Below are positions 34,854 to 51,111 of a DNA stretch of 64,000 nucleotides, one piece after another. The notes below the pieces were generated by a model. It was not told the origin of the DNA and searched no databases. It saw only the letters and a list, made by a program, of their open reading frames with translations. Source of the stretch: Desulfobacterium sp. Lineage in GTDB: Bacteria; Desulfobacterota; Desulfobacteria; Desulfobacterales; Desulfobacteraceae. Numbering within the stretch: the first letter of the stretch is position 1; each line of letters starts with the position of its first letter. The DNA lies in NCBI GenBank assembly GCA_030145245.1, contig JAQYWC010000043.1, forward strand, positions 62,001 through 126,000, written 5' to 3'. The position numbers and the translations under genes were made by a program.

Positions 34854-37493
34854 ATGCAGTATTTGAGTGCTATCCTGCCGCTCTTTTCAGCGATCATCTA
34901 CCTGTGCCTGGGAGTCTCTGTCTTTTTTCTCTCCCGGGGACAGCTGCGCAAGGTATTTCTCAGGTTCTGCTATATCACCTTCCACTGGCAATTTTCATGG
35001 TTTCTGCTCTTTCTGCTGAACGACCCGGAGCATTCAGAGCTCATCTGCCGCATCGGATACTCGGGAATCATCTTCCTCCCGGTGAGCGCCTATGAAACCC
35101 TGGTCCACTATCAGAATCATTCAACCCGGCACATCAGATGGATATACTGGCTCTGTTTCGGATTCCTGATCAGCCTCTGGACCACGGATCTCTTCATGAA
35201 AGGCACCCACACCTACCCATTTGGAATCTATCCGGAAGCAAACATACTCCATCTGGCCTACCTCCTCATGGTATGCTTTTTAATCGTGAGAAATTCCGTT
35301 GTGATGATCAAGGTAATCCGGAAAGAGCAAAACCCCATCAAGAAAAAGCAGCTTATTATTTTCCTTATTTCAACCATCATCTTCTGTTTCTCCTCCATAG
35401 ACTACCTGTTAAACTACCCCTCCCTGATTGAGAACATCAATTTCCAGTTCTATCCCTTTGGCGTCTTTTTCATCACCTTGAGCCTCCTGGTGTTTATCCT
35501 CTCCCACTTCATCACCCTCAACCTGACCCTGGAGAGCCGGGTTGCCCAAAAGACAATTCAGCTCAAAGAGTCCATCGAGGCACTGAAGAAAGCCGCCAAC
35601 ACCAAGAAAGAGTTTATCGCCAACGTCACCCACGAGCTCAGGACCCCCCTGACATTGATCCGGGGATGGACCGACTATATCATTGGCGGGGAATCGGGGA
35701 CGGTTTCCGACCCCCTGTTGAACATCATCGACAAAATCAACCTCCAGACCCTCACCCTCACGGAAAAGATCAACGAACTGCTGAAGGTCTCCCGGTTTGA
35801 AGCGGGAATGGCCAAGTTGACCCTGTCCTGGGTCGACATGGATACCTACATATCCCAGATCGTCTCAAGCTTCCGGGGGCTTACCGATAAAAACGGCATT
35901 CAACTCGTTTACCACTGCGAGCCTGATATCCCGCCCATGTTAATGGACAAGGAGAAGCTCAAGGATATTCTCAACAATCTGGTCCGGAACGCCTATAAGT
36001 TCACCGATACAGGCGAGATCAATGTGGCGGTATCAACCCGTGAAGAGACCATTGCCATCGAGGTGAGGGACACCGGCATCGGCATGTCGGAAGAACTTGT
36101 CAAACATGCGTTCCAGAGATTTAAGCAGGGGGACGGCTCCACAACAAGACGTTACGAGGGAACAGGCCTTGGGCTTGCCATTGTCAAGGATTCAGTGTCC
36201 ATGATGCACGGCCGGATAGCCCTTGACAGTACGGAAAACCTGGGCACCCGCTTTGTCATAGAACTGCCCGTCCACCTTGAAACCATTGCCCCGGACGCCA
36301 TCATCGAACGCAGACAAAACGACCGGCGGACCCAATTCCGGAAGCTGTCCCATGGGGAGCGGCGAACCCGGGACCGTCGCACCAGCGATCTGGCAAGGCT
36401 CGACAACAGGGAGCTCATCAAGATCTCTGCCGCGGACAAGACAGGCCTCACCTGGAACCGGGCGAAAAAAATCGAGGCACCACACCCCAAGGGATGCCTG
36501 GTCATTGCCGAAGACAACCGGGGCATCCAGGACTTTCTGGCCCGCACACTCAACGACTACACCCTCTACATCACCCCCAACGGCGCAGCCGCCTGGGAGA
36601 CCATCCAGGCCGTGGACCCCGATCTTGTGCTCTCCGATGTAATGATGCCGTTCATGGACGGTTACTCCCTGCTGGAAGCGATCAGACTCGATGAAAAGAC
36701 AAAGAACATCCCGGTGATCATGCTCACCTCTTTAACCGAACAGGATGACCGGATAAAAGGCCTTCAGCTGGGGGCAGACGATTACCTGACCAAACCGTTC
36801 CACCATCTGGAACTCAGGGCCCGGGTGAAAAACGTCATCAGCCAGCTCAGGCTATACAGGGAAAAAACCCGCACGGAACAGCTGGAGGTGTTTCTCATGG
36901 TTCTTGCTTCGGCCATTGAATCAAAAGACAAGTATACAGGCGGTCATGTGGAACGGGTTGCAGGTTACGCAAGGGAGCTTGCCGGAAAAAACAACCTTCC
37001 GGCACACAAGATCAACGACATCTACCTTGGCACCATTGTCCATGACATCGGGAAACTGGGTATCAAGGACGAGATCCTCAACAAGCCGGGAAAACTGACA
37101 AAGGAAGAGTTCGATCAGATCAAGGAACACCCGGAGATCGGGAAAAACCTTCTGTCAAAGCTTGAGATCGCTCCGGTGGCCGTGAACATTGCCTACAACC
37201 ACCACGAGAAATGGGACGGAACCGGGTATCCCAGGGGTATCAAGGGTGAGGAAATTCCCATTGAAGCCCGGATCGCCACCGTGGCCGACTTCTGGGATGC
37301 CATCACCTCGGACAGGCCCTACCGCAGGGCCATGCCCCTGGACAAGGCCATGAAAATCATGCACCAGGAGCGGGGCAAATCCTTTGATCCGAAGCTGTTT
37401 GACCTGTTCATGGATGGGGGGGATAAACTGCACATGAAGTATATCGATGCAGACAGGGTCAAGGAAGAAGAGGCCCTGGCAGTCGCACCTTAA
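34854..37493 (+). CDS. 7TM histidine kinase fused to REC and HD-GYP c-di-GMP phosphodiesterase
   Basis: An 879-residue fusion. Residues 1-225 hold about seven hydrophobic helices (7TM sensor type). The H-box is ANVTHELRTPLTLIRG, His near 259. The ATPase domain (about 360-475) has NNLVRNAYKFTD, DTGIGM and GTGLGLAI. A receiver (about 546-665) has its Asp in VLSDVMMPFMDG near 594. An HD-GYP domain follows (about 680-850) with HDIGK near 730 and GTGYPRG near 788, the residues needed to hydrolyse c-di-GMP. Kinase, receiver and output are thus in one chain. It is in an operon with the PilZ-hotdog gene, so the same transcript makes a c-di-GMP degrader and a likely c-di-GMP effector. Confidence 0.9.
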   Translation: MQYLSAILPLFSAIIYLCLGVSVFFLSRGQLRKVFLRFCYITFHWQFSWFLLFLLNDPEHSELICRIGYSGIIFLPVSAYETLVHYQNHSTRHIRWIYWLCFGFLISLWTTDLFMKGTHTYPFGIYPEANILHLAYLLMVCFLIVRNSVVMIKVIRKEQNPIKKKQLIIFLISTIIFCFSSIDYLLNYPSLIENINFQFYPFGVFFITLSLLVFILSHFITLNLTLESRVAQKTIQLKESIEALKKAANTKKEFIANVTHELRTPLTLIRGWTDYIIGGESGTVSDPLLNIIDKINLQTLTLTEKINELLKVSRFEAGMAKLTLSWVDMDTYISQIVSSFRGLTDKNGIQLVYHCEPDIPPMLMDKEKLKDILNNLVRNAYKFTDTGEINVAVSTREETIAIEVRDTGIGMSEELVKHAFQRFKQGDGSTTRRYEGTGLGLAIVKDSVSMMHGRIALDSTENLGTRFVIELPVHLETIAPDAIIERRQNDRRTQFRKLSHGERRTRDRRTSDLARLDNRELIKISAADKTGLTWNRAKKIEAPHPKGCLVIAEDNRGIQDFLARTLNDYTLYITPNGAAAWETIQAVDPDLVLSDVMMPFMDGYSLLEAIRLDEKTKNIPVIMLTSLTEQDDRIKGLQLGADDYLTKPFHHLELRARVKNVISQLRLYREKTRTEQLEVFLMVLASAIESKDKYTGGHVERVAGYARELAGKNNLPAHKINDIYLGTIVHDIGKLGIKDEILNKPGKLTKEEFDQIKEHPEIGKNLLSKLEIAPVAVNIAYNHHEKWDGTGYPRGIKGEEIPIEARIATVADFWDAITSDRPYRRAMPLDKAMKIMHQERGKSFDPKLFDLFMDGGDKLHMKYIDADRVKEEEALAVAP

Positions 37494-37508: not shown

Positions 37509-37997
37509 TTACCCGTTGTCATCGCTGTTGCCGGGGGATGCATCGGGGATAAGATAACTTGTGCCGCCCAGATTTACAAAGAGGTGGCCCTCCTTTTCCT
37601 CCATGAATTTCGACAGCTTTACCAGGGCACGGTCGGAAAATTTGATCCTGTGCTCCGGGGTCCGGAGATAGAGGGCGTCGTCACGGCTGTAGAGCTCATC
37701 CGGGCACAGGGGCAGCCGGGTCTTGTTGTTCAACAAAAGTTCAACCGCCTTGCCCAGGGTCAGGTCAACCACGAACAGGGCCGTGTCCTCATGGCAGAAA
37801 TAAACCTTTTCCTCAAACTCGTCGGTCACCTGGTAGACATGATAGCCGATCTCGTCCTTGCGGATGGATGCGTTGAAATAGTTGATCATCTTGGGATGTT
37901 CAAACCTGCCGTGCTCGTTGTGCCACACCCCGTGTTTGTCCATCCAGAAGACAGCCTCCTCCTTTGGCACGGTGATCATAGGAATTTTTGATGCCAT
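37509..37997 (-). CDS. DUF1285-like hypothetical protein
   Basis: A 162-residue soluble protein with no signal peptide. The pattern FWMDKHGVWHNEHGRFEHPKM, then YFNASIRKDEIGYHVYQVTDEFEEKVYF and FVVDL, resembles the DUF1285 family, but the resemblance is by eye. A GAGGGGC stretch precedes the ATG. It is the last gene of the leftward SCP2 - aminotransferase - transketolase group, 114 bases after the second SCP2-like gene, and converges with the HD-GYP gene. Membership of the operon is likely because strand and spacing agree. Confidence 0.55.
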   Translation of the reverse strand: MASKIPMITVPKEEAVFWMDKHGVWHNEHGRFEHPKMINYFNASIRKDEIGYHVYQVTDEFEEKVYFCHEDTALFVVDLTLGKAVELLLNNKTRLPLCPDELYSRDDALYLRTPEHRIKFSDRALVKLSKFMEEKEGHLFVNLGGTSYLIPDASPGNSDDNG

Positions 37998-38111
37998 GAT
38001 GCCCCTCGTTCTCCAACAGTTATCGCCTGTAGCGGCTTATTGCAGCAACCCGTATAGGGTTTACTCCATTTTAGCTGAAGAGTCAAAGGGCAGCATGTAT
38101 TTTCTTTCCTG

Positions 38112-38885
38112 TCACACAACCATTGCCTGGATGCGCTGCATGAAGTCATTGAGATTGGAGCCGTACTCAGGGGATCCTTCGATGGTCACAAACTCCTTTC
38201 CAATGGCCTCCACAAAGGGCAACTCGTTTAAAAACACGGACAGGGCTGCACTGACACCGTTGAACTTCATGTGTACAAACGGCCGCCGCCGGGTGTAAAG
38301 TCCCCGTCCCGCCTTTGACTTGCCCGCCTTGACCCGGACATAGGCCGCAATCTCCTCTCCCGTGACGGACATCTGGTAGACCCGGTCCGGCTGTTTCCTG
38401 GTCCAGGCCGCCATATCCGGATCCCCGGCCTTGTTATACTGGCTCAGGGCCGTGGTAATCATGTAGACCACCATCTTTACCTTGAGCCGTTGTTTGACCT
38501 CATCCCCGGGCTTTACCGCCGGCATGAGGATCTTCATGGCAAGGAGCAACCTCACCACCTTGATGAGCAAAAACGGCTTCCCATACCCCTTGATGGACGG
38601 GATAACGGTCTTTCCCGTCATGAAACGGTTGAATTGCAGATGATTCTTAAAGGAAAACGTAATATCAGCAGTCTCCGCGATCCCCTGTTCGATCTCAAGT
38701 TGTCCCCGGTCAAACACCAGCACGGCCCCGTCTTCGTCCTGGCCGATGCGGAACTGAATCCGGGCGGTGAGATCCTGGAACCGCTTTCTCATACTGGGAT
38801 CATCGGCCACCGCCACTTTCATCACCGGGAAGATGGCCCTGAGGATGATCCTTGTCGCAAGTCGGGTTCTGTCAATGGATTCCAT
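38112..38885 (-). CDS. SCP2-like protein (second copy in operon)
   Basis: A 257-residue protein starting two bases after the stop of the transketolase C-subunit (TAGGATG) with GAGGTG upstream; an earlier start at 38921 would overlap that gene. The central part, GAVLVFDRGQLEIEQG with ADITFSFKNHLQFNRFMTG, has the sterol-carrier-protein-2 pattern, a lipid-binding fold. A basic stretch (KAGKSKAGRGLYTRRRP) follows, then a hydrophobic C-terminal segment. It is probably cytoplasmic. With the related protein at 42152-42913 it brackets the aminotransferase and transketolase genes. It may hold a hydrophobic substrate for them; that is inference. Confidence 0.5.
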   Translation of the reverse strand: MESIDRTRLATRIILRAIFPVMKVAVADDPSMRKRFQDLTARIQFRIGQDEDGAVLVFDRGQLEIEQGIAETADITFSFKNHLQFNRFMTGKTVIPSIKGYGKPFLLIKVVRLLLAMKILMPAVKPGDEVKQRLKVKMVVYMITTALSQYNKAGDPDMAAWTRKQPDRVYQMSVTGEEIAAYVRVKAGKSKAGRGLYTRRRPFVHMKFNGVSAALSVFLNELPFVEAIGKEFVTIEGSPEYGSNLNDFMQRIQAMVV

Positions 38886-38886
38886 C

Positions 38887-39906
38887 CTACACCTCGTCAT
38901 CCCAGTTTTCATCCTCTTCAAAATCCTTTCCCATCACCGCCCTCACCCTGTCGATGATGCCGTTGGTATCGAGCTTGTAGTGGGCATAGAGATCCTCGGG
39001 ATACCCCACAAGGGAGAACTCGTCCGGGATCCCCACCTTTTCAAAGGCGCACCCTTTGCCGCTTGCGGCGATCACATCGGCAACAGCCGTGCCAAGCCCG
39101 CCGATCACGCTGTGGTCCTCAAAGGTGATGATGCGCCGGGTCTCTGTAACAGCCCTGAGGATGGCGGCTTCGTCCAGGGGCTTGATGGTGTGGAGATTGA
39201 TCACCCTGACGCTCAGGCCGTCCTCCTCCTTGAGCACCCTTGCGGCTTCGGCCGCCTGGAGCACGGTGACACCGCAGGCTATGATGGTGATGTCGGTTCC
39301 GGGGGTAAGTTCAACAGCCTTGCCGATCTCAAACCCGTAATCTTCGGTCTCATAATAGGTGGGCTCAAATCCCCTGCCCACCCGGATATAGACGGGTCCG
39401 GGATGGTTCACACAGGCCCTGACCGCGTTGGCGGTCTCAATGCCGTCCGCCGGCACGATCACCGTCATATTGGGCATGGCCCGCATGATGGCCAGGTCCT
39501 CTGTGGCGTTGTGGGTGCTGCCCGCGGTGCCAAAGGAGATGCCCCCGTGGGTGGCGATGATCTTGCAATCCAGGTTCTGGTAGCAGATGTCGGTTCTCAC
39601 CTGCTCGCAGGCCCGCATGCTGGTAAAGGCGGCCATGGTCGAAACAAAGGGGAGAAATCCCGCCTTTGCAAGACCTGCTGCCACGCCGAACATGTTCTGC
39701 TCCGCGATGCCCACGTTAAAGAACCGCCCGGGAAAGCGGTCGCCGAATAGACCGATTTTGGTTGATTTGGCAAGGTCTGCCGACAGCCCTACGATATCGG
39801 GATTCTCCTCCCCCAGTTCGCACAGCACATGGCCGTAAATCTCCGCCTGTGTCATGCTGTTTGCATCATAAACGGTCCAGGTGGTTCCGGTTACCTCTTC
39901 TGCCAT
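38887..39906 (-). CDS. Transketolase, C-terminal subunit
   Basis: A 339-residue pyrimidine-binding and C-terminal half of a split transketolase. GGAGGG lies 4 bases before the ATG at 39906. Motifs include DIVGLSADLAKSTKIG, the thiamine-contacting Glu in FFNVGIAEQNM, FTSMRACEQVRTD and THGGISFGTAGSTHNA (catalytic His region), and the C-terminal domain GVTVLQAAEAA. It ends in an acidic tail (DFEEDENWDDEV). Its partner N-subunit precedes it by 10 bases. Together they can form a thiamine-diphosphate enzyme that transfers two-carbon units between sugars or other ketols. Because of its partner genes it is unlikely to serve only the pentose pathway. Confidence 0.9.
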   Translation of the reverse strand: MAEEVTGTTWTVYDANSMTQAEIYGHVLCELGEENPDIVGLSADLAKSTKIGLFGDRFPGRFFNVGIAEQNMFGVAAGLAKAGFLPFVSTMAAFTSMRACEQVRTDICYQNLDCKIIATHGGISFGTAGSTHNATEDLAIMRAMPNMTVIVPADGIETANAVRACVNHPGPVYIRVGRGFEPTYYETEDYGFEIGKAVELTPGTDITIIACGVTVLQAAEAARVLKEEDGLSVRVINLHTIKPLDEAAILRAVTETRRIITFEDHSVIGGLGTAVADVIAASGKGCAFEKVGIPDEFSLVGYPEDLYAHYKLDTNGIIDRVRAVMGKDFEEDENWDDEV

Positions 39907-39916
39907 GGTACCCTCC

Positions 39917-40762
39917 TTAGTTAGCCCTGTTAAACCGCTTGTCAACAGAGGCCCTTGCCTGATCTGCAAGGGTCGAATCCATGCTGCCGTAATGCCACTT
40001 CACATTATCCTCCATGTAGTCCACACCGCTTCCCTTTTTCGTGTTGGCGATGATGAGCACCGGGGCACGCTCCTCGGCATGGGCTTCGGTAACAGCCTGG
40101 CAGATCTGGTTGAAGTCGTGGCCGTCGATCTCCTTTACGATGAAACCAAAGGCCTTCCACTTGTCCGCAAAGGGCTCAACCCCCATGACCTCCTCTGTGT
40201 TGCCGTCGATCATCAGCCGGTTCCGGTCCACGATGGTGACTAGATTGGTGACCTTGAAGTGGGCCGCTGCCATGGCTGCTTCCCACACCGTCCCCTCGTT
40301 GCACTCCCCGTCCCCCAGCAGGCAATAGGTGTACCAGGACTCGTTCCTGAGCCTTGCCCCCAGGGCCAGGCCCAGGGCCATGGGCAACCCGTGACCCAGG
40401 GAGCCGGTGGAGACATCCACCCCGCGAACCTTCCGGGCATCCAGGTGCATGCCAAAGGGAGAGTTGAACTGGTTAAAGGTTTTCAGGGTCTCAAAATCAA
40501 AGTAGCCCTTTCTGGCAAGCACCGGGGCATAACCGACCCCGCCGTGGCCCTTGCTGACCACCACCCGGTCCCGGTCCGGTTTTTCAGGATTCGCGGGATC
40601 CACCTTGAGCAGGTGAAAGTAGAGACTCACCAGGATATCCACCATGCTAAGGCCGCCGCCGATATGGGCCCCTCCGGCCCACACCGTGACATCGATGATG
40701 TCCCGGCGAACCTGCCAGGCCAGCTCTTCAAGCTTCCTGAGCTCTGTCTGAGTTAGTGCCAT
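39917..40762 (-). CDS. Transketolase, N-terminal subunit
   Basis: A 281-residue thiamine-diphosphate-binding half of a split transketolase. GGAGG precedes the ATG by 5 bases. It has the diphosphate-binding motif GDGECNEGTVWEA (about 147-159), followed about 30 residues later by Asn in VDRNRLMIDG; HIGGGLSMVDIL and SKGHGGVGYAP are also typical. It is followed by the C-subunit gene. Upstream, a 21-bp perfect inverted repeat separates it from the aminotransferase gene, so its transcription may be partly independent or the repeat may process the mRNA. Which ketol is transferred is not known. Confidence 0.9.
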   Translation of the reverse strand: MALTQTELRKLEELAWQVRRDIIDVTVWAGGAHIGGGLSMVDILVSLYFHLLKVDPANPEKPDRDRVVVSKGHGGVGYAPVLARKGYFDFETLKTFNQFNSPFGMHLDARKVRGVDVSTGSLGHGLPMALGLALGARLRNESWYTYCLLGDGECNEGTVWEAAMAAAHFKVTNLVTIVDRNRLMIDGNTEEVMGVEPFADKWKAFGFIVKEIDGHDFNQICQAVTEAHAEERAPVLIIANTKKGSGVDYMEDNVKWHYGSMDSTLADQARASVDKRFNRAN

Positions 40763-40782
40763 TGTTCCTCCTTTTAAGTAAC

Positions 40783-40854
40783 GGGGTCAGGCTTAGCTTA
40801 TTGTCGTTATTTGCGGGGCCCGGTTAACTGTTTCAATAAGCTAAGCCTGACCCC
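40783..40854. repeat. 21-bp perfect inverted repeat (REP/MITE-like)
   Basis: GGGGTCAGGCTTAGCTTATTG (20 of 21 bases shown as GGGGTCAGGCTTAGCTTATT) at 40783-40803 pairs perfectly with the complementary arm at 40834-40854. A 30-base loop lies between, with GGGCCC inside. It lies between the transketolase N-subunit and aminotransferase genes. It resembles the palindromic elements mobilised by REP-associated transposases; no such transposase is in the window. Confidence 0.7.
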
Positions 40855-40867
40855 TATCGATTCGACG

Positions 40868-42112
40868 TTAGGCCTGCCCCCCATCTAAAGCGTTGAACGC
40901 CTCGTCCACGATCTCCAGGGTCTGGCTGATCACCTCTTCATCATGGGCAAGGGACATGAACAAATTGTGATGGGACGCTAAAAACACCCCACGCTTGGTG
41001 CACTCTGCGCACCACTGCTGGTGGAGCATGTTGGTATCGTCGTTGGCGATCCTGATATTGGGCATGGACCAGGCACCGGTCACCTTGAGGTCATATCCGT
41101 ATCCTGCAGCCATGGTTTGCATGGCTGTAAAGAGCTTTTTCCCGTTTTCCAGCATCACGGCCGGTGCATCGAGGCGTTTGAGCTCGGTGAGACAGGCAAT
41201 GGCCGCGGCCATGGGAACGGCCTGGTTCCAGTAACTGCCGGTATAGAAGATCTTGGCGGCATCGAGTTTCAGGCTCTCCCTGCCCACCAGGGCCGAGATG
41301 GGAAAACCGTTGGCAAGAGCCTTGCAAAAGCAGATAAGATCGGGCTTGAACCCGAAATACTCGCAGGATCCCCCCATGTCGAGCCTGAAGCCGTGGCGGA
41401 TGTCGTCCAGGATCAGGACGATGCCGTTTTTTCTGCAGATCATTTCGATCCCGGGCCAGTACCCCGCCTCCGGCAGTTCGTTATCGTAAAACGTGGCAAC
41501 ATGGTAGGGGGTTGCGATAAATCCTGCGATCTCGCCGGGATATTGGTCAACGGCCTGCTGAAAAGCGTCCACATCGTTCCAGGGAACCCGGATGATGTGG
41601 CTGTAATCCTCCTCGATGAGGCCGTGGTGACCCGGGGGCTGCATCCAGGGAGCAACCCCGTGGTATCCCCCCTGGATCATGACGATCTTTTTCCTGTTTG
41701 TGGCAGTCCTTGCGATCATGGTGGCATAATTGGTGACATCCCCCCCATTCTTGGCGAAAAAAGCCCAGTCCGCGACCGGGACCATCTCCACCAGGAGTTC
41801 GGCAAGCTCGACCATCTTTGGAGAGGCACCCATGGTGAGATCCGCAGATTTCAGCTGCTCGGTTGCCGCATTGTCAACCAGGGGATTGTTATACCCCAGC
41901 ACCATGGGGCCGTAGGCGCACATATAATCGATGAAGCGATTGCCGTCCAGATCGTAGAACGTCGCTCCTTTGGCTTTTTCCGTAAAAATGGGATAATCTG
42001 CGGCCGGAACGTTCACCCCTGGACTCATATGGCCCGGGACACCGCAGGGAATCACCTTAACGGCCCGCTGGAAGAGTTGCTGGGATCGTGAATAGTCATA
42101 GGTCGTTGTCAT
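40868..42112 (-). CDS. Class III (glutamate-1-semialdehyde aminomutase-like) aminotransferase
   Basis: A 414-residue PLP enzyme. It has the class III pattern: FYDLDGNRFIDYMCAYGPM near the N-terminus, FAKNGGDVTNYATMIAR, the PLP-contacting Asp region ILDDIRHGFR, and the Schiff-base Lys in CFCKALANGFPISALVG near residue 262. It is closer to GSA aminomutase relatives than to ornithine or GABA aminotransferases. GAGGTAG precedes the ATG. It follows the first SCP2-like gene by 39 bases. With a transketolase it could aminate a keto sugar or a keto product; the substrate is unknown. Heme biosynthesis is unlikely, as no other heme gene is near. Confidence 0.85.
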   Translation of the reverse strand: MTTTYDYSRSQQLFQRAVKVIPCGVPGHMSPGVNVPAADYPIFTEKAKGATFYDLDGNRFIDYMCAYGPMVLGYNNPLVDNAATEQLKSADLTMGASPKMVELAELLVEMVPVADWAFFAKNGGDVTNYATMIARTATNRKKIVMIQGGYHGVAPWMQPPGHHGLIEEDYSHIIRVPWNDVDAFQQAVDQYPGEIAGFIATPYHVATFYDNELPEAGYWPGIEMICRKNGIVLILDDIRHGFRLDMGGSCEYFGFKPDLICFCKALANGFPISALVGRESLKLDAAKIFYTGSYWNQAVPMAAAIACLTELKRLDAPAVMLENGKKLFTAMQTMAAGYGYDLKVTGAWSMPNIRIANDDTNMLHQQWCAECTKRGVFLASHHNLFMSLAHDEEVISQTLEIVDEAFNALDGGQA

Positions 42113-42151
42113 GGCAGCTACCTCTTTTGTCTTGACGCTGGTTGGTGTTGA

Positions 42152-42913
42152 TTACGACAGGTACAGGGGTATCCTGTCGAGAATCAGGTTGATGGCCTCG
42201 ATCATGGGGATCCGCCCCTTCATCATCACATCCCCGGTGGCAAGGGCGGCAAAGGCATCACTGTTTCCGTTCAACAGATCGTTTGCCGTCTGTTCATCCT
42301 TGAAGAGCAGCACGGCAGAAGGCCTGGCACAGGGTTGGTCCAACACCTCGACGGTGTCGCCGTCAAAGCTCAGAACGGCTGAGGGTCCCTCCGGCAGCAC
42401 CCTGAACTCAACCGTCCCATTGGGTATGTGGGCCCTGTTGAACTTTCCAAGGGTATCGTGGAGCGCCAGAAGCTTTACGGCGTTGACTGCGGTATTCAAT
42501 GTAAACCGGGTGTTGATCCTGAGATAATCGGGATCAGCAAGCCTGGCGTTATCGGGCTTCAGATAAAACTCAAGCCTGTCGGTGATCTTGGGAAACTCCG
42601 TGGATAGGAATTTCAAAAATTTAATTCCCTTCACGGGAACCGGGTTGGATTTTCCCTCCATGACACGGTTGAAGTGGGCAGGAGAAAAACAGAGGAGTCT
42701 GATCCGGGGGCGATGGTGTTTCCCAGGCCTCACCCGGCATTGTCCGGCCTTGAACTCCACAGAGCATTTGGGCCCGAACAGGGTTGAGAACTCGATGGCA
42801 AAATCAAGTTCTTTTACCTGTTCAGCCACCTGGCTGTCAAGCAGGACTAATTCCTCAAGGTTCTTCATCACGGCGTTCATGTTCAGGAGGGCTTTGATCT
42901 GTTCATGGTTCAT
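42152..42913 (-). CDS. SCP2 sterol-transfer-like protein (first copy in operon)
   Basis: A 253-residue protein from the ATG at 42913 with GGAG 8 bases upstream; a GTG at 42949 lacks a site. It appears to hold two related lipid-binding halves. The second is a typical SCP2 end, SFDGDTVEVLDQP, then LFKDEQTANDLLNGNSDAFA and GDVMMKGRIPMIEA. The first half has VEFKAGQCRVRPG and FNRVMEGKS, like the protein at 38112-38885. It is the first gene of the leftward operon and faces a divergent TetR regulator. It may carry a hydrophobic intermediate; this is inference. Confidence 0.65.
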   Translation of the reverse strand: MNHEQIKALLNMNAVMKNLEELVLLDSQVAEQVKELDFAIEFSTLFGPKCSVEFKAGQCRVRPGKHHRPRIRLLCFSPAHFNRVMEGKSNPVPVKGIKFLKFLSTEFPKITDRLEFYLKPDNARLADPDYLRINTRFTLNTAVNAVKLLALHDTLGKFNRAHIPNGTVEFRVLPEGPSAVLSFDGDTVEVLDQPCARPSAVLLFKDEQTANDLLNGNSDAFAALATGDVMMKGRIPMIEAINLILDRIPLYLS

Positions 42914-42986: not shown

Positions 42987-43004
42987 TGAGTGAGCAGTCA
43001 CTCA
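42987..43004. promoter_or_regulatory. TetR-type operator palindrome
   Basis: TGAGTGA-GCAG-TCACTCA is a perfect 7-bp inverted repeat with a 4-bp spacer in the gap between the operon and the divergent TetR gene. It has the same layout as operators of fatty-acid-responsive TetR regulators such as Bacillus FadR (TGAATGA-N4-TCATTCA). Two tandem copies of CACTCACGATT at 42943 and 42958 contain a partial half-site. Confidence 0.6.
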
Positions 43005-43146: not shown

Positions 43147-43818
43147 ATGGAAGAGATTCAGACCATGGAGATCAAGCGACACTGCAAACCCGCCTTTGAC
43201 AAGCTCCCGGAGGAGAAACAGGAGCGAATTCTCGGGGCGGCTGCCAGGGAGTTTGCCGCCATGGGATTTACAGCGGCAAACATCAATGTGATGGCAAAAA
43301 GGGCCGGCATCAGCATCGGCTCCATGTACAACTACTTCACCTCCAAGGAGGACCTGTTCCTGACAGTGAACGACCAGGGCTACGAGGTGATCGCAGAGGT
43401 GGTCAACACCGTTGCCGCCCAGGAGGGGGACATTTTCCACAAGATCGAGACCCTGATCCGGGCGGTCCAGAAATATGCACGGCTCCACACCGAGCTGAAC
43501 CAGATCTATCTCGACATCACCTCCCAGGGCCTCAGCCATCTCTCAAGCAAACTCTCCAACCAGCTTGAGACCATCACGGCCGGACTCTACCACCGGTTGA
43601 TCAAAGAGGCCCAGGACCAGGGGATCGTCTCATCCGCCATTGATCCCTTCATGGGAGCGTTCTGCATCGACAACCTCGTCGTCATGCTCCAGTACGCCTA
43701 TGCCTCCGACTATTTTGCCCAGCGGCTGAAGATTTTTGCAGGCGAAGACGCCCTGGACAACGACGAAAAAATGGTACAGGGAATCATGCTTTTCATCCGG
43801 AAAGCCCTGGCCCCCTGA
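43147..43818 (+). CDS. TetR/AcrR-family transcriptional regulator
   Basis: A 223-residue TetR regulator. The N-terminal DNA-binding part has QERILGAAAREFAAMGF, then ANINVMAKRAGISIGSMYNYFTSKEDLFL (residues about 24-75), the family helix-turn-helix. The C-terminal ligand domain is variable (IDPFMGAFCIDNLVVMLQ). GGAG precedes the ATG closely. It is divergent from the SCP2/aminotransferase/transketolase operon with a FadR-style palindrome between, so it probably represses that operon and itself. By analogy an acyl-CoA or similar ligand is likely, but this is unproven. Confidence 0.9.
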   Translation: MEEIQTMEIKRHCKPAFDKLPEEKQERILGAAAREFAAMGFTAANINVMAKRAGISIGSMYNYFTSKEDLFLTVNDQGYEVIAEVVNTVAAQEGDIFHKIETLIRAVQKYARLHTELNQIYLDITSQGLSHLSSKLSNQLETITAGLYHRLIKEAQDQGIVSSAIDPFMGAFCIDNLVVMLQYAYASDYFAQRLKIFAGEDALDNDEKMVQGIMLFIRKALAP

Positions 43819-43867: not shown

Positions 43868-45586
43868 TCAATCCTGCTGCTGGATCATCCTGAGGGTTCT
43901 CATGCGGTTGATGGCGGCGGCAAGCTCAAGGGGCCTGAACCTTGCGTGATCGCCCACCACAAAGGGCATGAGAATGTCGAGCCCCTGTTCGTCCAGGTCC
44001 TTGTCCACCCTTGCAATCACCTGTTTAAGGGTTCTTTTACCGTCCATGTACTGCATGGCATGGAAGATGGCCCGGCCCATGGCCCGGGTCTGGGAGGTGT
44101 GGACGATCTGTTCAAGGTCCCAGAGATCGATCAGGGTATTGCCGAACACAATGGCCCGGTCTCCCTGGTTCTTTATCCGCTGGCGCCCCTCCCGGCCGGA
44201 TGGGTTGAAGCTCTTCTTAACCGGAATCCTGAGCCGTATCTTCCCCAGTTCTCCCCCGGCCTCGTTCCTGCGGCCGGTATCATGGGTTTCAACAATGGTG
44301 CGCGCCTTTTCGCTCACATCCAAGGGCGCGTAATTGGTCATCTGGATCACCTGGTCGGCAACGGCAAAATAGTCTCCGGAGCCGCCCATCACCAGAACCG
44401 TGGAGATCCCCCTCTCCCTGTGGAGCTGCTTTACCCTGTCCACAAAGGGAGTGATGGGTTCGTTCTCCTTTGCCACCAGCTGCTGCATCAACACATCGCG
44501 AACCATGAAGTTGGTTGCGCAGGTGTCCTCGTCAAGGAGCAGTGTGGTCGCCCCCGCCTCCATGGCTTCGGAAATGGCTGCGGCCTGGGAGGTGCTGCCG
44601 CTGGCATTGGCCGTGGAAAAAGCTTTGGTATCCTTTCCAAAAGGCAGGTTATTGATAAAGGGCGAAATATCTGTCTTCTCGATGCTCCTGCCGTCGGCAG
44701 CCCTGATCTTGAACGTCCCTGGCGTGCTCACGGCCAGCTCCCGCCCGTCCCCGGGCACATGGTTGTATACGCCAAGCTCCAGGGCGCTGAGCAGGGTGGA
44801 TTTTCCGTGGTACCCTCCCCCCAGGATCAGGGTCACCCCCTTGGGGATGCCAAGGCCTGCAACCTCTCCCCGGTTGGGAAGGTCCACCGTCACCCGGAAG
44901 CTTTCGGGAGAGGAAAACGGGACAACCGTGCCCTTGCCCAACGGCCGGGAATCTATGCCGCTTGCCCTGGGAAGAAGGGAGCCATCCGCGACAAATCCCA
45001 CCAGTCCCAGGGAATCGAGCTTATATCTCAGGAGATCGGCATCCTCGGCCACCTCGATATGCCCACGGATCTCGTTCAGATCAAGGCTTGACAGGAACAT
45101 GGAATGGTCTACGATCCTGGGAAGTTCATCAAAAAACATGACCCTTGCATTACGACCGGAGATTTTACGGCCAAAGGCGGGCAGCCCCATGAAGAACCGG
45201 GCCTCCACATGGTGCTGGTCCACGACCATGGCGCTGCGCTCAAGGATCTCCTGTTGGGGACGGTCGATGGTGACAAGACCGCTCTTGCCGATGCCCCGCT
45301 CCTGTTTTGCAAACCGCTGGCAGTTGCGATAAAATCTGCGGGTCAAAAAATCGCAAAAGGCTATGGTCCGGCTGGGGTTTGATGTGAGTTCCGGCCCAAA
45401 GCCTGTCCTGGATCGCTGAACCCTGACCCGGATCCTGCTGGGGTTGGAATAGGGGTCTCCCTGGACATGGTCGATAAAAAGAGTAAAGGATTTAAACCCG
45501 TACCTGCCCTTGATATCCTTATACGCCTTAAACCCCCTGCCGTCGATCCGGCTGAGGATCTCCCCCAGTTTTTTGCTGTTTTCCAT
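43868..45586 (-). CDS. Predicted ABC-class ATPase (COG3044)
   Basis: A 572-residue soluble ATPase of the COG3044 family (PF09818), function unknown. The ATG at 45586 has AAGGAAA upstream; an open stretch continues to 45778 but lacks a site. Motifs are the N-terminal RIDGRGFKAYKDIKG, an unusual Walker A GGGYHGKSTLL, and a Walker B-like TTLLLDEDTCATNF. The C-terminal part has QTRAMGRAIFHAM. Length matches the family. No membrane segments are present. It converges with the TetR gene and is divergent from the REC-HD-GYP gene, so it appears to stand alone. Confidence 0.85.
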   Translation of the reverse strand: MENSKKLGEILSRIDGRGFKAYKDIKGRYGFKSFTLFIDHVQGDPYSNPSRIRVRVQRSRTGFGPELTSNPSRTIAFCDFLTRRFYRNCQRFAKQERGIGKSGLVTIDRPQQEILERSAMVVDQHHVEARFFMGLPAFGRKISGRNARVMFFDELPRIVDHSMFLSSLDLNEIRGHIEVAEDADLLRYKLDSLGLVGFVADGSLLPRASGIDSRPLGKGTVVPFSSPESFRVTVDLPNRGEVAGLGIPKGVTLILGGGYHGKSTLLSALELGVYNHVPGDGRELAVSTPGTFKIRAADGRSIEKTDISPFINNLPFGKDTKAFSTANASGSTSQAAAISEAMEAGATTLLLDEDTCATNFMVRDVLMQQLVAKENEPITPFVDRVKQLHRERGISTVLVMGGSGDYFAVADQVIQMTNYAPLDVSEKARTIVETHDTGRRNEAGGELGKIRLRIPVKKSFNPSGREGRQRIKNQGDRAIVFGNTLIDLWDLEQIVHTSQTRAMGRAIFHAMQYMDGKRTLKQVIARVDKDLDEQGLDILMPFVVGDHARFRPLELAAAINRMRTLRMIQQQD

Positions 45587-45772
45587 GACCGTTTCCTTAT
45601 GATTGAGATATGTTCCATCTATACCCCCGCCAGCTTCAAAATGCAATGGCAAGGGCTTCCCCCAACAGGGCGTTTCCCAACGCTCTTTTTCCTCAAAGCC
45701 GCATTTCCCCCGCCGATTTTTCCCTTGCGGCACACTCAAAATATTGGTATTAATTAGGTTAATGTATCTATT

Positions 45773-45784
45773 TCTCACGTGAGA
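45773..45784. promoter_or_regulatory. TCTCACGTGAGA palindrome in a divergent gap
   Basis: A perfect 12-bp palindrome lies between the starts of the COG3044 ATPase and HD-GYP genes, about 100 bases before the latter. It may be a regulator site. No protein can be assigned. Confidence 0.3.
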
Positions 45785-45885: not shown

Positions 45886-47436
45886 ATGACTGATGACAGC
45901 CTCTTTGCCGATGAAATTGAAGAGGAGAGTGACGGCGGTTTAAAGTTACCAAAGCCTCCCGGCTGGAAGGTGTTGATCGCCGACGATGAAGAGGAGGTCC
46001 ACTCCACCACCCGCCTGGTATTGGGCGATTTTGATTTTGAAGGCCGGGGCCTGGAGTTTATCAGCGCCTACTCCGGAACCGAGGCCCTGGCTGTGATGAA
46101 AGAGCACACGGACATCGCCGTCATCCTGCTGGATGTGGTGATGGAGACCAACAGCGCAGGCCTGGATGCGGTCAGGGTTATCCGGGAGGAGCTGCAAAAC
46201 AACCTGGTCCGCATCATTCTTCGCACCGGCCAGCCGGGCCAGGCGCCGGAACGTAAGGTGATCACCGATTTTGATATCAACGATTACAAAGACAAGACCG
46301 AGCTTACGGTCCAGAGGCTGTTCACCGCCCTCTACAGCGCCCTTCGATCCTACCGGGATCTTACGTCCATCGACAGGAACAGGACCGGCCTGAAATACAT
46401 CATCGACGCATCCGGCAGCCTGTTCCAGCAGAACTCCATCAAAAAACTTGCCAAGGGGGTACTCACCCAGATCATCGCCCTTTTGGGGCTTCAAAACTCC
46501 ATCTTCGTAGAGCGGGGGGGATTCACCGCAGCCCAAAAGAGCGACGGACAGCTGGAGATCATCGCCACCACCGGAAAATATGCAGAAAACGGCATCAGCA
46601 ACGCTCACCTTACCATCGCACCTGAGATGAAATCCAAGATCCGGCAGGTGGCAGAGGAAGAGAGCAGCAAATTCTTCGGCAACGACTATGTGGGCCACTT
46701 CCCCACCCAGAAGGAGAAACAGCACATCATCTATCTGGAAAACTGCGGGGAAAGACAAGACGAGCAGGATATCGATCTCTTGAAAATTTTCACCACCAAT
46801 GTGGGGATTGCCTTTGACAACGTCTACCTGAACCAGGAGATCATCGACACCCAGAAGGAAGTGATCCTGCGCCTGGGGGAAGTTGTGGAAACCCGCTCCA
46901 AGGAGACCGCCTTCCACGTGGTGAGGGTCGCCGAGTATATCGGGATTATTGCCGAGGGCATGGGGCTTTCCGAGGAGGAGACAAACCTTCTCAAACTTGC
47001 CTCGCCCATGCACGACATCGGCAAAATCGGCATCCCCGACTCCATTCTCCTCAAGCCCGGCCACCTGAACGACGACGAGTTTGCCATGATGAAGACCCAC
47101 GCCTATATAGGATACCGCATCCTCAAGGGGTCCACCCGGGAACTGCTTAAAACAGCGGCCGTCATCGCCTACACCCACCACGAACGCTGGGACGGTTCAG
47201 GCTACCCAAGAAGGCTTGCCAAAGATAAGATTCCCCTGTATGGGCGCATCACCTGCTTTGCCGACATCTTTGACGCCCTGCTGACGGATCGCGTTTACAA
47301 GAAGGCATGGTCCGTGAGCAGGGTGGAACACTTCATTACCGAACAAAACGGAAAGACCTTTGATCCGGATGTTGTAGACGCCTACATCAGGAACCGGGAC
47401 AAACTCATGGCCGTCCGGGAACAGTACAGGGATTAA
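45886..47436 (+). CDS. Response regulator with DUF3369 and HD-GYP domains
   Basis: A 516-residue c-di-GMP phosphodiesterase. The receiver (about 28-150) has [11 protein letters not shown] and the Asp in [19 protein letters not shown]3369 domain (about 155-320) follows. The HD-GYP domain (about 330-510) has [33 protein letters not shown] and [15 protein letters not shown], so the metal and GYP motifs are complete. No kinase is adjacent. Its stop overlaps the convergent nfo gene by 4 bases. The DUF3369 domain's function is unknown, but this combination is common in deltaproteobacteria. Confidence 0.92.
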
Positions 47437-48917: not shown

Positions 48918-50819
48918 TTATTTTACGTCGATACCCTCAGCATATTCCGACAAGCCCAGATTTTCCAGCGTGTCTGTGTTGGGGATTCCGGTCGCCAGAT
49001 CCCATCCGCGGGATTCATAGTACTCTTTGAGCATCTGATCATAATTCCGGATACCGCATTCAGGTGTATCTTTATAGCTCCCGAATTCAGGAACCTTTTT
49101 GACCCGGGAAGGCAACTGGTCGTCGGCAACACCAAGGCCCTCACGGACATTGAATAACCGCTGCAGATTCAAGGTTCTTGAACCGACTCTGATCAACTCT
49201 TTTTCGGTCATGTCCCATCCGGTTGTGGCATTGAGCATTTCAAGCCACAAATCCGGGCTCAGGCCGGCATAGCTCATGAACTTACAGGTGGTCAGAATAT
49301 CCGGTAGAACCATACCATCCTGGAGCAGGGCACAATCCGTGCCCTTGCCTTTTTCATCCCAGCGGCCAACGGTTTCCGGATCCCGGACCCCGTGTTTTTG
49401 CATGCCCCAATCCATTTTACCCCGGTCAAAGGCCATCCCTTCCAGGGGATGAATATGGCACATGCCACGATTGGCAGTTCCGTATGCCACGGCAAGAACC
49501 TTACCGGAACGGCCGTCATGGGCAGGACCTTCCAGCCCTTTCACATGAACGGCAAATTCAGAGGCGCCCCGGCCGATCTTTTCAGCCGCAACTTTGACCC
49601 CGTCAGCCAGAAGATCCCCCAGCCCCTCACGGTTACAGATCATTTTAAGCAGTTTGGGCAGCACATCGGGATTTCCCCATTCCAGGTCAAGCCCCCCAAG
49701 CAGTTCCGGCGGCAGAAGATTGCGCTCCATACACTCCATGGCAAAGCCGATCACCGCCCCGGATGAAATGGTATCCATCCCCATATCATTGCAAAGATAA
49801 TCGCAATGGACCGCGGCGTTCATGTCCTTGTTCACGACAAATGCAGTAAATGCGGAGATACTTTCATATTCACCGCCCTCATGAACGGGTGTTGCAAACG
49901 GCCCTTCCTTGACCTGTACAATACGGCCACAGGCAATGGGACAGCCGGAATAGCATCCGTTTGCACGTACCAGATTTTTTTCCTGGAACATATCAAACAA
50001 CTCAGGCCCCTTTCCCCAGCTGTTGGATTTCCAGTTTTTGGTGGGCCAGTCCCCATCTTCATCATTGGCAGCCATATCGCCAATGGTGCCATATTTGTGA
50101 AACCCGTCACGCATCTCATCGGATCGAACCGTTTTCATGGCATGTCTGGTGGCAGCCAAAAATCGTTTCTTGTCCCCATGCCCGGCCTTTTGATTACCCC
50201 CAACGCACACCGCCAAAAGTTTTTTGGACCCAAGTACTGCCCCGCCGCCCCCACGGCCTGCTGCGCGATCCCGCAGCATCACAGAGGAAAATTTCACCAT
50301 ATTTTCACCGGCAGGGCCAATGGTCATGGCAGAGCCACGGGCGACATCTTTAAGGATATTTTCTTCCAGCCAGTCGGTTTTTTCATAAACGGTTTTCCCT
50401 GCAATTGGCGCGGCGTCATGGAGTTGGGCACAGCCATTGATCACCGACAAAAATTTCGGCGTATCGGATTTGCCTTCAACCACAATAAAATCCACACCGG
50501 CACGCCGCATATCCGGCCCGAAATTTCCGCCGCAACGGGACTCGCCCCAGGCATTGGTCTGGGGCGATTTAAAACAGACCATGACACTTCCGCCCCCGGG
50601 AACCAGGTTCTCAGACAAAGGGCTGGTTGAAAAAATTATTTTATTATCCGGCCCCAGGGGATCGGCTTTGGCCGGAACCTCCGTGTACAGCAAATGGGCT
50701 GAATACCCGGCACCGCCAATAAATTTGCGTGCAATTTTGGGATCAACGTCTTCCAGGGTGCACACACTGGCCGTTAAATTTACCCGTAACAGTTTACCTG
50801 CATATCCGGCTAACATCAT
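48918..50819 (-). CDS. aor: Aldehyde:ferredoxin oxidoreductase
   Basis: A 633-residue tungsten/molybdenum-pterin enzyme that oxidises aldehydes to acids with ferredoxin. The start at 50819 has AAGGA about 10 bases upstream. Motifs include GYAGKLLRVNLT at the N-terminus, GGAGYSAHLLY and AWGESRCGGNFGPDM. The [4Fe-4S] Cys are in CYSGCPIAC near 287 and in TTCKFM near 508. Length is typical for AOR (605-650). It is the last gene of a leftward group with MoaD and ThiF, which could supply the pterin dithiolene sulfur. Neighbouring serine dehydratase and epoxide hydrolase suggest a catabolic pathway making an aldehyde. Confidence 0.93.
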   Translation of the reverse strand: MMLAGYAGKLLRVNLTASVCTLEDVDPKIARKFIGGAGYSAHLLYTEVPAKADPLGPDNKIIFSTSPLSENLVPGGGSVMVCFKSPQTNAWGESRCGGNFGPDMRRAGVDFIVVEGKSDTPKFLSVINGCAQLHDAAPIAGKTVYEKTDWLEENILKDVARGSAMTIGPAGENMVKFSSVMLRDRAAGRGGGGAVLGSKKLLAVCVGGNQKAGHGDKKRFLAATRHAMKTVRSDEMRDGFHKYGTIGDMAANDEDGDWPTKNWKSNSWGKGPELFDMFQEKNLVRANGCYSGCPIACGRIVQVKEGPFATPVHEGGEYESISAFTAFVVNKDMNAAVHCDYLCNDMGMDTISSGAVIGFAMECMERNLLPPELLGGLDLEWGNPDVLPKLLKMICNREGLGDLLADGVKVAAEKIGRGASEFAVHVKGLEGPAHDGRSGKVLAVAYGTANRGMCHIHPLEGMAFDRGKMDWGMQKHGVRDPETVGRWDEKGKGTDCALLQDGMVLPDILTTCKFMSYAGLSPDLWLEMLNATTGWDMTEKELIRVGSRTLNLQRLFNVREGLGVADDQLPSRVKKVPEFGSYKDTPECGIRNYDQMLKEYYESRGWDLATGIPNTDTLENLGLSEYAEGIDVK

Positions 50820-50832
50820 TCTAAATATTTCC

Positions 50833-51111
50833 TTATCCACCGATTAAGAATCGGTTGCATTTTATATGTTGGTTTTCTTTGAGTTCAATGGAATAGTCGG
50901 TGATCACAACCCCGTCAATGGACAGGGTGATGGGTCCCCGGAAGAATTTCTTTTCCCGATTCCACACGGACCCGGGCAGTTGGCTGCCCACGTGCCCGTC
51001 AATCCGACGAATAAGATCATTGACCGTACTATGTTCCGGCAGATCAAACGCGTGCATATCAAAGGGAAATTTTTCCCTGAGCATCCCGCATATTTCCAGC
51101 ACAATTTTCAT
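50833..51111 (-). CDS. MoaD/ThiS-like sulfur-carrier protein
   Basis: A 92-residue ubiquitin-like protein that starts KIVLEICGMLREKF and ends in LIGG, the di-Gly tail needed for adenylation and thiocarboxylation. It has HSTVNDLIRRID and a central GPITLSIDGVVITDY strand. It follows the ThiF-like gene by 13 bases and the AOR gene begins 13 bases later, so it is probably the dedicated sulfur carrier for the AOR pterin cofactor. Use in a thiamine or cysteine pathway is less likely from context. Confidence 0.85.
   Translation of the reverse strand: MKIVLEICGMLREKFPFDMHAFDLPEHSTVNDLIRRIDGHVGSQLPGSVWNREKKFFRGPITLSIDGVVITDYSIELKENQHIKCNRFLIGG

What the first reader, a model, noticed from the sequence alone, without database searches (positions are those of the whole stretch)
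37509..42913. SCP2 - aminotransferase - split transketolase - SCP2 operon of unknown product
Two SCP2-like lipid-binding proteins bracket a class III aminotransferase and a two-subunit transketolase, with a DUF1285-like gene at the end and a TetR repressor opposite. Transketolase plus aminotransferase suggests building or breaking an amino-ketol; the SCP2 proteins suggest a hydrophobic substrate. I know of no described pathway with this set.
Basis: partly seen in the sequence, partly recalled or inferred. Interest (0 to 1): 0.7.

Follow-up and report, generated by a model that had tools for sequence, protein, structure and literature searches.

The report
Lipid-linked transaminase–transketolase gene cassette
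A five-gene bacterial cassette, found in the same order in many phyla, pairs a relative of a fumonisin-deaminating enzyme and an unusual two-part transketolase each with its own lipid-carrier-like protein, and probably takes apart (or builds) the backbone of sphingolipid-like fats by a route not yet described.

Summary
In detail: a minus-strand operon (42913-38112) encodes SCPa, a class III aminotransferase (AMT), transketolase N and C subunits and SCPb, with a divergent TetR gene and an operator found exactly once in the 6.4-Mb genome. The 'DUF1285-like' gene is a weak match seen only in this genus. The cassette is widespread: of 62 named loci with enough downstream sequence, 40 have both transketolase genes behind AMT, all with SCPb. 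Three clues narrow the substrate. AMT's closest solved relative by far is FumI, which deaminates hydrolysed fumonisin, a sphingoid-base analogue, with pyruvate. In some gut Clostridia serine-palmitoyltransferase-like and ketosphinganine-reductase-like genes stand beside SCPa-AMT instead of transketolase. The transketolase keeps its catalytic residues but lacks R91 and D469; D469 was changed in E. coli on the way to non-polar aldehydes. Most likely the cassette deaminates a sphingoid-type base and cleaves C2-C3 to a fatty aldehyde and a C2 unit; the reverse (synthesis without SPT) is not excluded. No activity is shown.

The parts
43147..43818 (+). TetR-family repressor, divergent from the cassette
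   Evidence: PF00440 46.7 bits; a TetR homologue lies somewhere in 23 of 40 loci with TK behind AMT and in 0 of the 22 without
42987..43004 (.). Palindromic operator TGAGTGA-N4-TCACTCA between TetR and SCPa
   Evidence: 0.01 expected in the window with up to 1 mismatch; only exact match in the 6.4-Mb genome; exact copies in the TetR-SCPa gap of L031, L037 (two), L048, L058, L061, L062, L063, L064
42152..42913 (-). SCPa, two SCP2-like folds in tandem; partner of the aminotransferase
   Evidence: PF02036 over cut-off; AF2 pLDDT 94.4; SCP2/UbiJ/alkylsulfatase matches; directly upstream of AMT in 70 of 76 loci
40868..42112 (-). AMT, class III aminotransferase of the FumI (aminopentol aminotransferase) kind, catalytic Lys264
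   Evidence: Profile vs PDB: FumI 436.7 bits, next 246.5; Lys in 99 of 101 tree rows
40783..40854 (.). REP-like inverted repeat between AMT and TKn (not a functional part, as far as seen)
   Evidence: Two exact inverted copies of a 20-mer
39917..40762 (-). TKn, transketolase N-terminal (ThDP-binding) subunit
   Evidence: PF00456 142.8 bits; best PDB match the split transketolase of Carboxydothermus, 253.5 bits; H26, H66, H100, D155, E160, H261 in 53 of 53, R91 changed to N in 53 of 53
38887..39906 (-). TKc, transketolase pyrimidine-binding and C-terminal subunit
   Evidence: PF02779/PF02780; 6yaj 274.4 bits; E411, H461, H473, S385, R520 in 51 of 51; D469 changed to A in 50 of 51 and G in 1; L466 to F in 51 of 51
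38112..38885 (-). SCPb, two SCP2-like folds in tandem; partner of the transketolase
   Evidence: PF02036 26.4 bits; AF2 pLDDT 91.8; present in 40 of 40 loci with TK behind AMT and behind AMT in 0 of the 22 others; stays beside TKn-TKc where these sit away from AMT (L282, L283, L284, L303)
37509..37997 (-). Short DUF1285-like protein; follows the cassette in this genus only, probably not part of it
   Evidence: 16.3 bits, below cut-off; among fetched loci found only in L048

Best explanation
A locally repressed, inducible module that takes apart sphingoid-type long-chain bases (2-amino-1,3-diols). SCPa extracts or presents the free base to AMT, which moves the 2-amino group to pyruvate (giving alanine) and leaves a 1,3-dihydroxy-2-ketone. 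SCPb presents this ketol to the split ThDP transketolase, which breaks the C2-C3 bond, transfers the C2 (glycolaldehyde) unit to a phosphorylated aldose and releases a fatty aldehyde for general fatty-acid metabolism. TetR holds the operon off until a substrate or intermediate binds it. SHOWN: gene content, order and conservation; FumI kinship; tandem SCP2 folds (predicted models); transketolase residue pattern; operator sequence; coupling of SCPb with TK; SPT+KdsR-like genes in the place of TK in some Clostridia. INFERRED: substrate class, reaction direction, order of steps, that TetR binds this operator, and its ligand.
For: (1) AMT profile: FumI (6hbs/6hbv) 436.7 bits, next hits (glutamate-1-semialdehyde aminomutases) from 246.5. 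Window AMT is 39% identical to FumI and 30% to a HemL. Of 93 columns at least 95% conserved in 65 cassette AMTs, 31 are shared with FumI only and 6 with HemL only. FumI moves the C2 amino group of hydrolysed fumonisin to pyruvate (PMC2933618, figure legend). (2) Sphingoid link by neighbourhood: in G265 (L133/L174) and G258 (L126/L173) the operon reads SPT-like, KdsR-like, SCPa, AMT; best NCBIfam models are serine palmitoyltransferase (516 and 517 bits) and 3-ketodihydrosphingosine reductase (218 and 224 bits), all below cut-off; the same four genes are adjacent in G556, G378 and G392. In 295 genomes of that order AMT is in 11 and SPT-like in 42, both in 6 (one-sided Fisher p 0.0016). (3) TK catalytic residues kept, R91 and D469 lost together; ordinary split TKs of TK-less or unlinked genomes mostly read GEDG (16 of 20 loci) where the four cassette-type ones read G(T/Q)AG; E. 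coli S385Y/D469T/R520Q was evolved from phosphorylated towards non-polar aliphatic and aromatic aldehydes, and D469T removes the salt bridge to R91 (PMC5073344, abstract and passages). (4) SCPa goes with AMT (70 of 76), SCPb with TK (40 of 40). (5) In L051 AMT is followed by one 779-aa ORF with an SCP2 domain fused to an E1-type ThDP enzyme. (6) Direction: FumI precedent; alanine dehydrogenase over cut-off beside the cassette in L045 and L059; SCPa-AMT stands without cassette-type TK and without SPT-like match in 10 genomes; repressor with a genome-unique operator; aldehyde dehydrogenase beside the cassette in L103.
Against: No activity, substrate or expression data. FumI is only 39% identical and on a long branch. 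Natural sphinganine is 3R while canonical transketolase makes and breaks 3S ketols (recalled), so an inverted stereochemistry would be needed. S385, H461 and R520 are conserved in 51 of 51; S385 contacts substrate phosphate (PMC5073344), the other two likewise as I recall, so a phosphorylated ketose may still be one partner or the only substrate. SPT+KdsR beside AMT can equally mean biosynthesis. SPT and TK are not strictly exclusive: five TK+ genomes (G224, G225, G234, G236, G239) hold an SPT-like protein of 53-61% identity. SPT-like and KdsR-like proteins score below NCBIfam's cut-offs (516 vs 640; 218 vs 400). Two aminotransferases (L046, L047) lack the catalytic Lys. Many of the genomes are incomplete MAGs, so absences are soft. 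I noticed no ceramidase or sphingosine uptake gene beside the cassette, but neighbours were read by eye and only partly scanned.
Confidence: 0.45

Rival explanations
1. The same chemistry run forward: an SPT-independent route to sphingoid bases. TK joins a C2 ketol unit from a sugar phosphate to a fatty aldehyde, AMT aminates the 2-ketone with alanine (kept up by alanine dehydrogenase), SCPa/SCPb carry the lipids.
For: TK and SPT+KdsR occupy the same place beside SCPa-AMT and would make the same C2-C3 bond; in the 295-genome set the 5 AMT genomes with cassette TK (4 linked, G318 unlinked) have no SPT-like match and the 6 without it all have one. The window genome has no SPT-grade protein (231 and 213 bits, cut-off 640). 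Coupled TK plus transaminase is an established laboratory route to a 2-amino-1,3-diol, 2-amino-1,3,4-butanetriol (PMC5813273, passages). Sphingolipids are abundant in anoxic waters and sediments (PMC11334938, abstract and passages; PMC12619533, passages).
Against: Lone SCPa-AMT in 10 genomes would have no ketol to aminate. 36 of 42 SPT-like genomes of that order have no AMT match, so SPT does not need it, and why AMT stays beside SPT is unexplained. Five TK+ genomes also hold an SPT-like protein. I saw no aldehyde-forming or ceramide-synthase cluster among the recurrent neighbours, but did not scan for them.
Confidence: 0.25
2. AMT-TK act on another hydrophobic amino-ketol (acyloin-type or polyketide-derived), not a sphingoid base.
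For: FumI itself acts on fumonisin's 2-amino-3-hydroxy chain (PMC2933618); the SCP2-E1 fusion beside AMT in L051 (family call) looks to me like an acetoin-dehydrogenase-type, acyloin-cleaving E1 (read by eye).
Against: Spread over many phyla with constant order suggests a common substrate; SPT+KdsR linkage points to sphingoid bases.
Confidence: 0.2
3. Ordinary sugar or amino-sugar metabolism; the SCP2-like proteins do not bind lipid.
For: S385, H461 and R520 of TK, residues that contact substrate phosphate (S385 from PMC5073344, the others recalled), are conserved in 51 of 51.
Against: Own separate transketolase in the genome; R91 and D469 lost throughout; FumI kinship; a tandem SCP2 protein conserved with each enzyme.
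Confidence: 0.07

Closest known systems
FumI, aminopentol aminotransferase of fumonisin catabolism (PDB 6hbs/6hbv)
   Same: Closest solved relative of AMT by a wide margin (436.7 vs 246.5 bits); shares 31 conserved columns that the HemL used lacks; acts on a 2-amino-3-hydroxy long chain with pyruvate as acceptor (PMC2933618)
   Different: 39% identity; FumI's gene cluster has no SCP2 or transketolase partner that I know of (recalled, not tested)
Split transketolase of Carboxydothermus hydrogenoformans (6yaj/6yak)
   Same: Two-chain transketolase, best PDB match of both subunits; accepts bulky aldehydes (PMC7661550, passages)
   Different: Keeps R91, R358 and D469; its gene neighbours were not examined here
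Bacterial sphingoid-base synthesis by serine palmitoyltransferase and 3-ketosphinganine reductase
   Same: Would form the same C2-C3 bond; SPT-like and KdsR-like genes sit beside SCPa-AMT in G258, G265, G378, G392, G556
   Different: Different chemistry (decarboxylating condensation of an amino acid with acyl-CoA); no SPT-grade match in the window genome
SCP2 domains of UbiJ and of SdsA1-type alkylsulfatases
   Same: Fold of SCPa and SCPb
   Different: Single domains, or fused to the enzyme; here two in tandem as a separate protein per enzyme

Membership tests
FumI-type aminotransferase | Sequence closer to FumI than to GSA aminomutase or other class III aminotransferases | tested here: met
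   436.7 vs 246.5 bits; on FumI's side of the split from HemL at 99* support, but long branches
FumI-type aminotransferase | Catalytic PLP lysine | tested here: met
   Lys264 in window; 99 of 101 rows, exceptions L046 and L047
FumI-type aminotransferase | Deaminates a long-chain 2-amino-3-hydroxy compound with pyruvate | not testable with these tools
   needs enzyme assay
Transketolase | ThDP/catalytic residues H26, H66, H100, D155, E160, H261, E411, H473 (E. coli numbering; roles recalled) | tested here: met
   53 of 53 TKn and 51 of 51 TKc
Transketolase | Full set of sugar-phosphate substrate residues R91, R358, S385, H461, D469, R520 (roles partly recalled) | tested here: not met
   S385, H461, R520 kept in 51 of 51; R91 lost in 53 of 53, D469 in 51 of 51, R358 in 49 of 51 (this column shifts with the alignment). 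So it works like a transketolase, with altered specificity
SCP2 lipid-binding protein | SCP2 sequence or fold | tested here: met
   PF02036 over cut-off for SCPa and SCPb; VIA Z 11.7, rmsd 2.6 A over 108 residues to 3bdq_B for SCPa; Foldseek E 1.5e-4 for SCPb to SdsA1
SCP2 lipid-binding protein | Binds a hydrophobic ligand | not testable with these tools
   no ligand data
Serine palmitoyltransferase pathway | SPT in the same genome | tested here: not met
   Window genome: best 231 bits against cut-off 640; such matches ring in 11 of 14 control genomes, over cut-off in 1
DUF1285 | Pfam gathering score | tested here: not met
   16.3 bits vs 29.3

The most novel reading that the evidence does not exclude
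A third way, beside serine palmitoyltransferase and sphingosine-1-phosphate lyase, to make or break the C2-C3 bond of sphingoid bases: a transaminase-transketolase pathway with an SCP2 carrier for each enzyme, spread across anaerobic sediment and gut bacteria of many phyla, linking sphingolipids directly to the pentose phosphate pool. (The odds are for all of these parts together, in either direction.)
Probability: 0.5. Interest if true: 0.88.

Novelty: new variant of a known kind. Interest (0 to 1): 0.74.

Why it matters
Sphingolipids make up about a fifth of the lipids in Black Sea sediment (PMC12619533, passage) and are common in the gut (recalled), yet my searches showed no paper that links a transketolase to long-chain bases: one search found 0 papers, and the papers listed (15 of 644; 9 of 9; 10 of 14) do not, as far as their listings show. 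If the reading is right, a conserved five-gene marker would show which anaerobes degrade or make sphingoid bases, explain lone FumI-like genes in gut Clostridia, and give natural transketolase-transaminase pairs for 2-amino-1,3-diols, a route that is known as a laboratory cascade (PMC5813273).

Tried and rejected
Housekeeping pentose-phosphate transketolase: rejected, the genome has its own 690-aa ORF with canonical transketolase residues, and a 641-aa ORF that I read as DXS. DUF1285 gene as a member: rejected. RNA element: no Rfam match at gathering score in the window; tRNA: none. Profile of SCPb against PDB sequences: no match up to E 0.1. R358 as a clean marker: dropped, its column shifts between alignments. 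Control for D469 in 30 loci of 29 order mates chosen from the 57 listed: mostly DXS-like, so weak; D in 24, L in five short split TK-like proteins, A in one that is itself a cassette remnant (L181). The better control is: of 20 other split-TK loci, 16 read GEDG, L294 and L305 read other motifs, and L301 and L302 gave no motif hit. G027 (L211) holds a truncated TKn, TKc and SCPb next to a transposase-like ORF with no SCPa or AMT in the stretch: described only. OYE-like proteins (BaiCD best for the one long form tested, 277 bits, cut-off 825) and VOC proteins beside clostridial and spirochaete cassettes (clusters of 7 and 8 loci) could handle a 2-enal from sphingosine, but this is speculation. 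An aldehyde ferredoxin oxidoreductase-like ORF next to the SCP2-E1 fusion in L231 was named by eye, not scanned; there AMT is present only as a C-terminal piece. My first count of the 295-genome set treated G318 as TK-; one search found its TKn-TKc-SCPb elsewhere in the genome, so it is counted TK+; likewise the genomes of L066 and L070 (G224, G225). The downstream count puts L116 among the 22 although TKc-SCPb lie just upstream there. Literature: searches listed no description of the cassette; the library holds open-licence PMC papers only, and most calls list a part of their matches.
Full report
WHAT IS THERE. The window lies in a 6.4-Mb genome whose order mates include Desulfoluna and Desulfatibacillum (by shared contigs). 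On the minus strand, 42913-38112, five genes follow closely: SCPa, AMT (class III aminotransferase), TKn, TKc and SCPb. TKc and SCPb all but touch (38887/38885). A REP-like 20-base inverted repeat lies between AMT and TKn. TetR lies opposite at 43147-43818. The gene at 37997-37509 is only a weak DUF1285 match (16.3 bits, cut-off 29.3) and among the fetched loci recurs only in the same-genus genome G001.

SPREAD. An AMT relative of 45% identity or more is in 25 of 194 order genomes, own genome included; six further rows are at 30-38%. In these 80, SCPa is directly upstream of AMT in 70 of 76 with room; the six without are the gammaproteobacterial clade L084, L085, L093, L098, L105, L107. Of 62 with 3.3 kb downstream, 40 have TKn and TKc behind AMT, all 40 with SCPb; 22 have none of the three there. 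One of the 22, L116, has TKc-SCPb just upstream of SCPa, and the genomes of two more, L066 and L070, hold the TK genes elsewhere. Where TK is away from AMT (G318, G224, G225), SCPb is still beside it (L282, L283, L284, L303). So there are two couples: SCPa with AMT, SCPb with TK. The AMT tree (101 rows, quick method) shows the TK label clustered but needing 11 changes, and phyla mixed, as expected of horizontal transfer and repeated loss.

THE AMINOTRANSFERASE. Against all PDB chains the AMT profile gives FumI (6hbs, 'aminopentol aminotransferase') 436.7 bits; the next, GSA aminomutases, start at 246.5. Of 93 columns conserved at 95% or more in 65 cassette AMTs, 45 are shared with both FumI and a HemL, 31 with FumI only, 6 with HemL only, 11 with neither. 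FumI transfers the C2 amino group of hydrolysed fumonisin B1 to pyruvate, giving the 2-keto compound and alanine (PMC2933618, figure legend and passages); fumonisins resemble sphingosine and sphinganine (PMC9858248, passage). The lysine is present in 99 of 101 rows; L046 and L047 have lost it.

THE TRANSKETOLASE. Both subunits are closest to the split transketolase of Carboxydothermus. In E. coli numbering, H26, H66, H100, D155, E160 and H261 are kept in 53 of 53 TKn; S385, E411, H461, H473 and R520 in 51 of 51 TKc. R91 is N in 53 of 53; D469 is A in 50 and G in 1 of 51; L466 is F in 51 of 51; R358 is not R in 49 of 51, but this column depends on the alignment. The genome's own full-length transketolase keeps R91, R358 and D469. 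In 24 genomes whose AMT has no TK beside it, the other split TKs fetched (38-45% identical) read GEDG in 16 of 20 loci; L294 and L305 read other motifs and L301 and L302 gave no motif hit; the four cassette-type ones read G(T/Q)AG. In E. coli TK, D469T removes the R91 salt bridge and makes room in the acceptor site, on an evolved path from phosphorylated to non-polar aldehydes (PMC5073344, abstract and passages). I read the natural pattern as a change of aldehyde specificity; that is inference. D469 is also lost (to L) in five other short split TK-like proteins of order mates, so its loss alone does not name the substrate.

THE SCP2 PROTEINS. AF2 models of SCPa (53-row alignment, pLDDT 94.4, pTM 0.90) and SCPb (46 rows, 91.8, 0.88) each show two alpha-beta SCP2-like units joined by helices. 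SCPa's best chains are SCP2 proteins and alkylsulfatase SCP2 domains (Z 11.7, rmsd 2.6 A, 108 residues for 3bdq_B); SCPb's likewise by Foldseek. SCPa and SCPb align over their whole length (hhalign probability 99.8), so they look like old paralogues, one for each enzyme.

NEIGHBOURS. In G265 and G258 the order is SPT-like, KdsR-like, SCPa, AMT; SCPa-AMT-SPT-KdsR in G378 and G392, and SPT-KdsR-SCPa-AMT in G556. NCBIfam's best models are serine palmitoyltransferase (516 and 517 bits, cut-off 640) and 3-ketodihydrosphingosine reductase (218 and 224, cut-off 400); both are below cut-off, so names are provisional (two of the five pairs were scanned). In 295 genomes of that order, AMT is in 11, SPT-like (E up to 1e-110) in 42, both in 6 (one-sided Fisher 0.0016). 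The 5 with cassette TK (4 linked, G318 unlinked) have no SPT-like match; the 6 without cassette TK all have one. Against a strict swap: in the 45 genomes (own plus 44 of the 80 loci), 24 match the SPT query at 1e-60, of which I take the 11 at 53% identity or more as SPT-like; five of these are TK+ (G224, G225, G234, G236, G239; the G236 match has one internal stop), and ten genomes without cassette TK (G243, G246, G248, G249, G252, G253, G254, G257, G264, G266) have no match at that level. Alanine dehydrogenase over NCBIfam's cut-off lies beside the cassette in L045 and L059, the two scanned; its cluster covers 14 loci, four of which I read as transhydrogenase subunits (L061, L063, L086, L106). 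In L051, AMT is followed by one 779-aa ORF with SCP2 (23.5 bits, cut-off 21.3), E1_dh, Transket_pyr and Transketolase_C domains; related 844-879 aa ORFs occur in 9 further order genomes, one of them (G189) with a C-terminal AMT piece, the others without AMT in the short flanks seen.

CONTROL. TGAGTGA-N4-TCACTCA at 42987-43004 is the only exact copy in the genome (0.01 expected in the window with one mismatch allowed). Of 18 TetR-SCPa gaps searched, a strict copy is present in eight (window, L031, L048, L058, L061, L062, L063, L064; strictness), a looser form in four (L040, L059, L060, L065), and none in six (L029, L055, L056, and the spirochaetes L092, L099, L110, which have other palindromes). 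L037, outside that set, has two copies. A dedicated repressor fits an inducible pathway; binding is inferred.

READING. The substrate class follows from FumI kinship, SPT+KdsR linkage, lipid-carrier-like partners and the TK site: a sphingoid-type 2-amino-1,3-diol and its 2-ketone. Catabolism is favoured by FumI's direction, possible pyruvate/alanine recycling, lone SCPa-AMT genomes (deamination alone would already disarm a cationic long-chain base; that such bases are antibacterial is recalled), and TK+SPT+ genomes, which would both make and break. Biosynthesis is favoured by the swap with SPT. Stereochemistry is an open objection: sphinganine is 3R, canonical transketolase ketols are 3S (recalled).

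LITERATURE. Seen by passages, with abstract where noted: PMC2933618, PMC9858248, PMC5073344 (abstract), PMC7661550 (abstract), PMC11334938 (abstract), PMC12619533, PMC5813273. None was read whole. No paper naming this cassette or pathway appeared in the listings.

Noticed in passing
L046 (13260-14486) and L047 (7872-9107): Aminotransferases of one genus have lost the catalytic lysine (C and N instead) and the transketolase genes are not beside them; in L047 a second C-terminal aminotransferase piece follows.
   Followed up: partly
L211 (G027): Cassette remnant: TKn cut short next to a transposase-like ORF, TKc and SCPb intact, no SCPa or AMT in the stretch.
   Followed up: partly
L036:10134-10532: The first 31 codons of TKn run straight into the last third of SCPb, as if TK had been deleted (or the assembly misjoined); its SCPa also shows a frame problem.
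   Followed up: no
L051:1798-4137, L231:4760-7303: One-gene fusion of an SCP2 domain with E1 alpha-beta ThDP enzyme next to AMT; similar long ORFs in eight further order genomes, some beside an SDR-like and a TetR-like gene.
   Followed up: partly
L083, L089, L092, L094, L099, L106, L128: BaiCD-like flavin oxidoreductase near the cassette, in some with a VOC-family protein.
   Followed up: partly
window 48918-50840, 51125-51997, 51906-53132: Aldehyde ferredoxin oxidoreductase-like, ThiF/MoeB-like and L-serine dehydratase-like ORFs about 6 to 10 kb from the cassette (read by eye, not scanned).
   Followed up: no
window 34854-37493 and 45886-47436: Two response-regulator/HD-GYP signalling proteins flank the region, one a hybrid histidine kinase (read by eye).
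   Followed up: no
window 43868-45778: ATPase of the ABC_ATPase family (PF09818, 403 bits) with an MRB1590-like C-terminal domain, next to the TetR gene.
   Followed up: no
L084, L085, L093, L098, L105, L107: Gammaproteobacterial aminotransferases of this family have no SCP2 or transketolase beside them but follow a POT-type transporter-like gene (read by eye).
   Followed up: no
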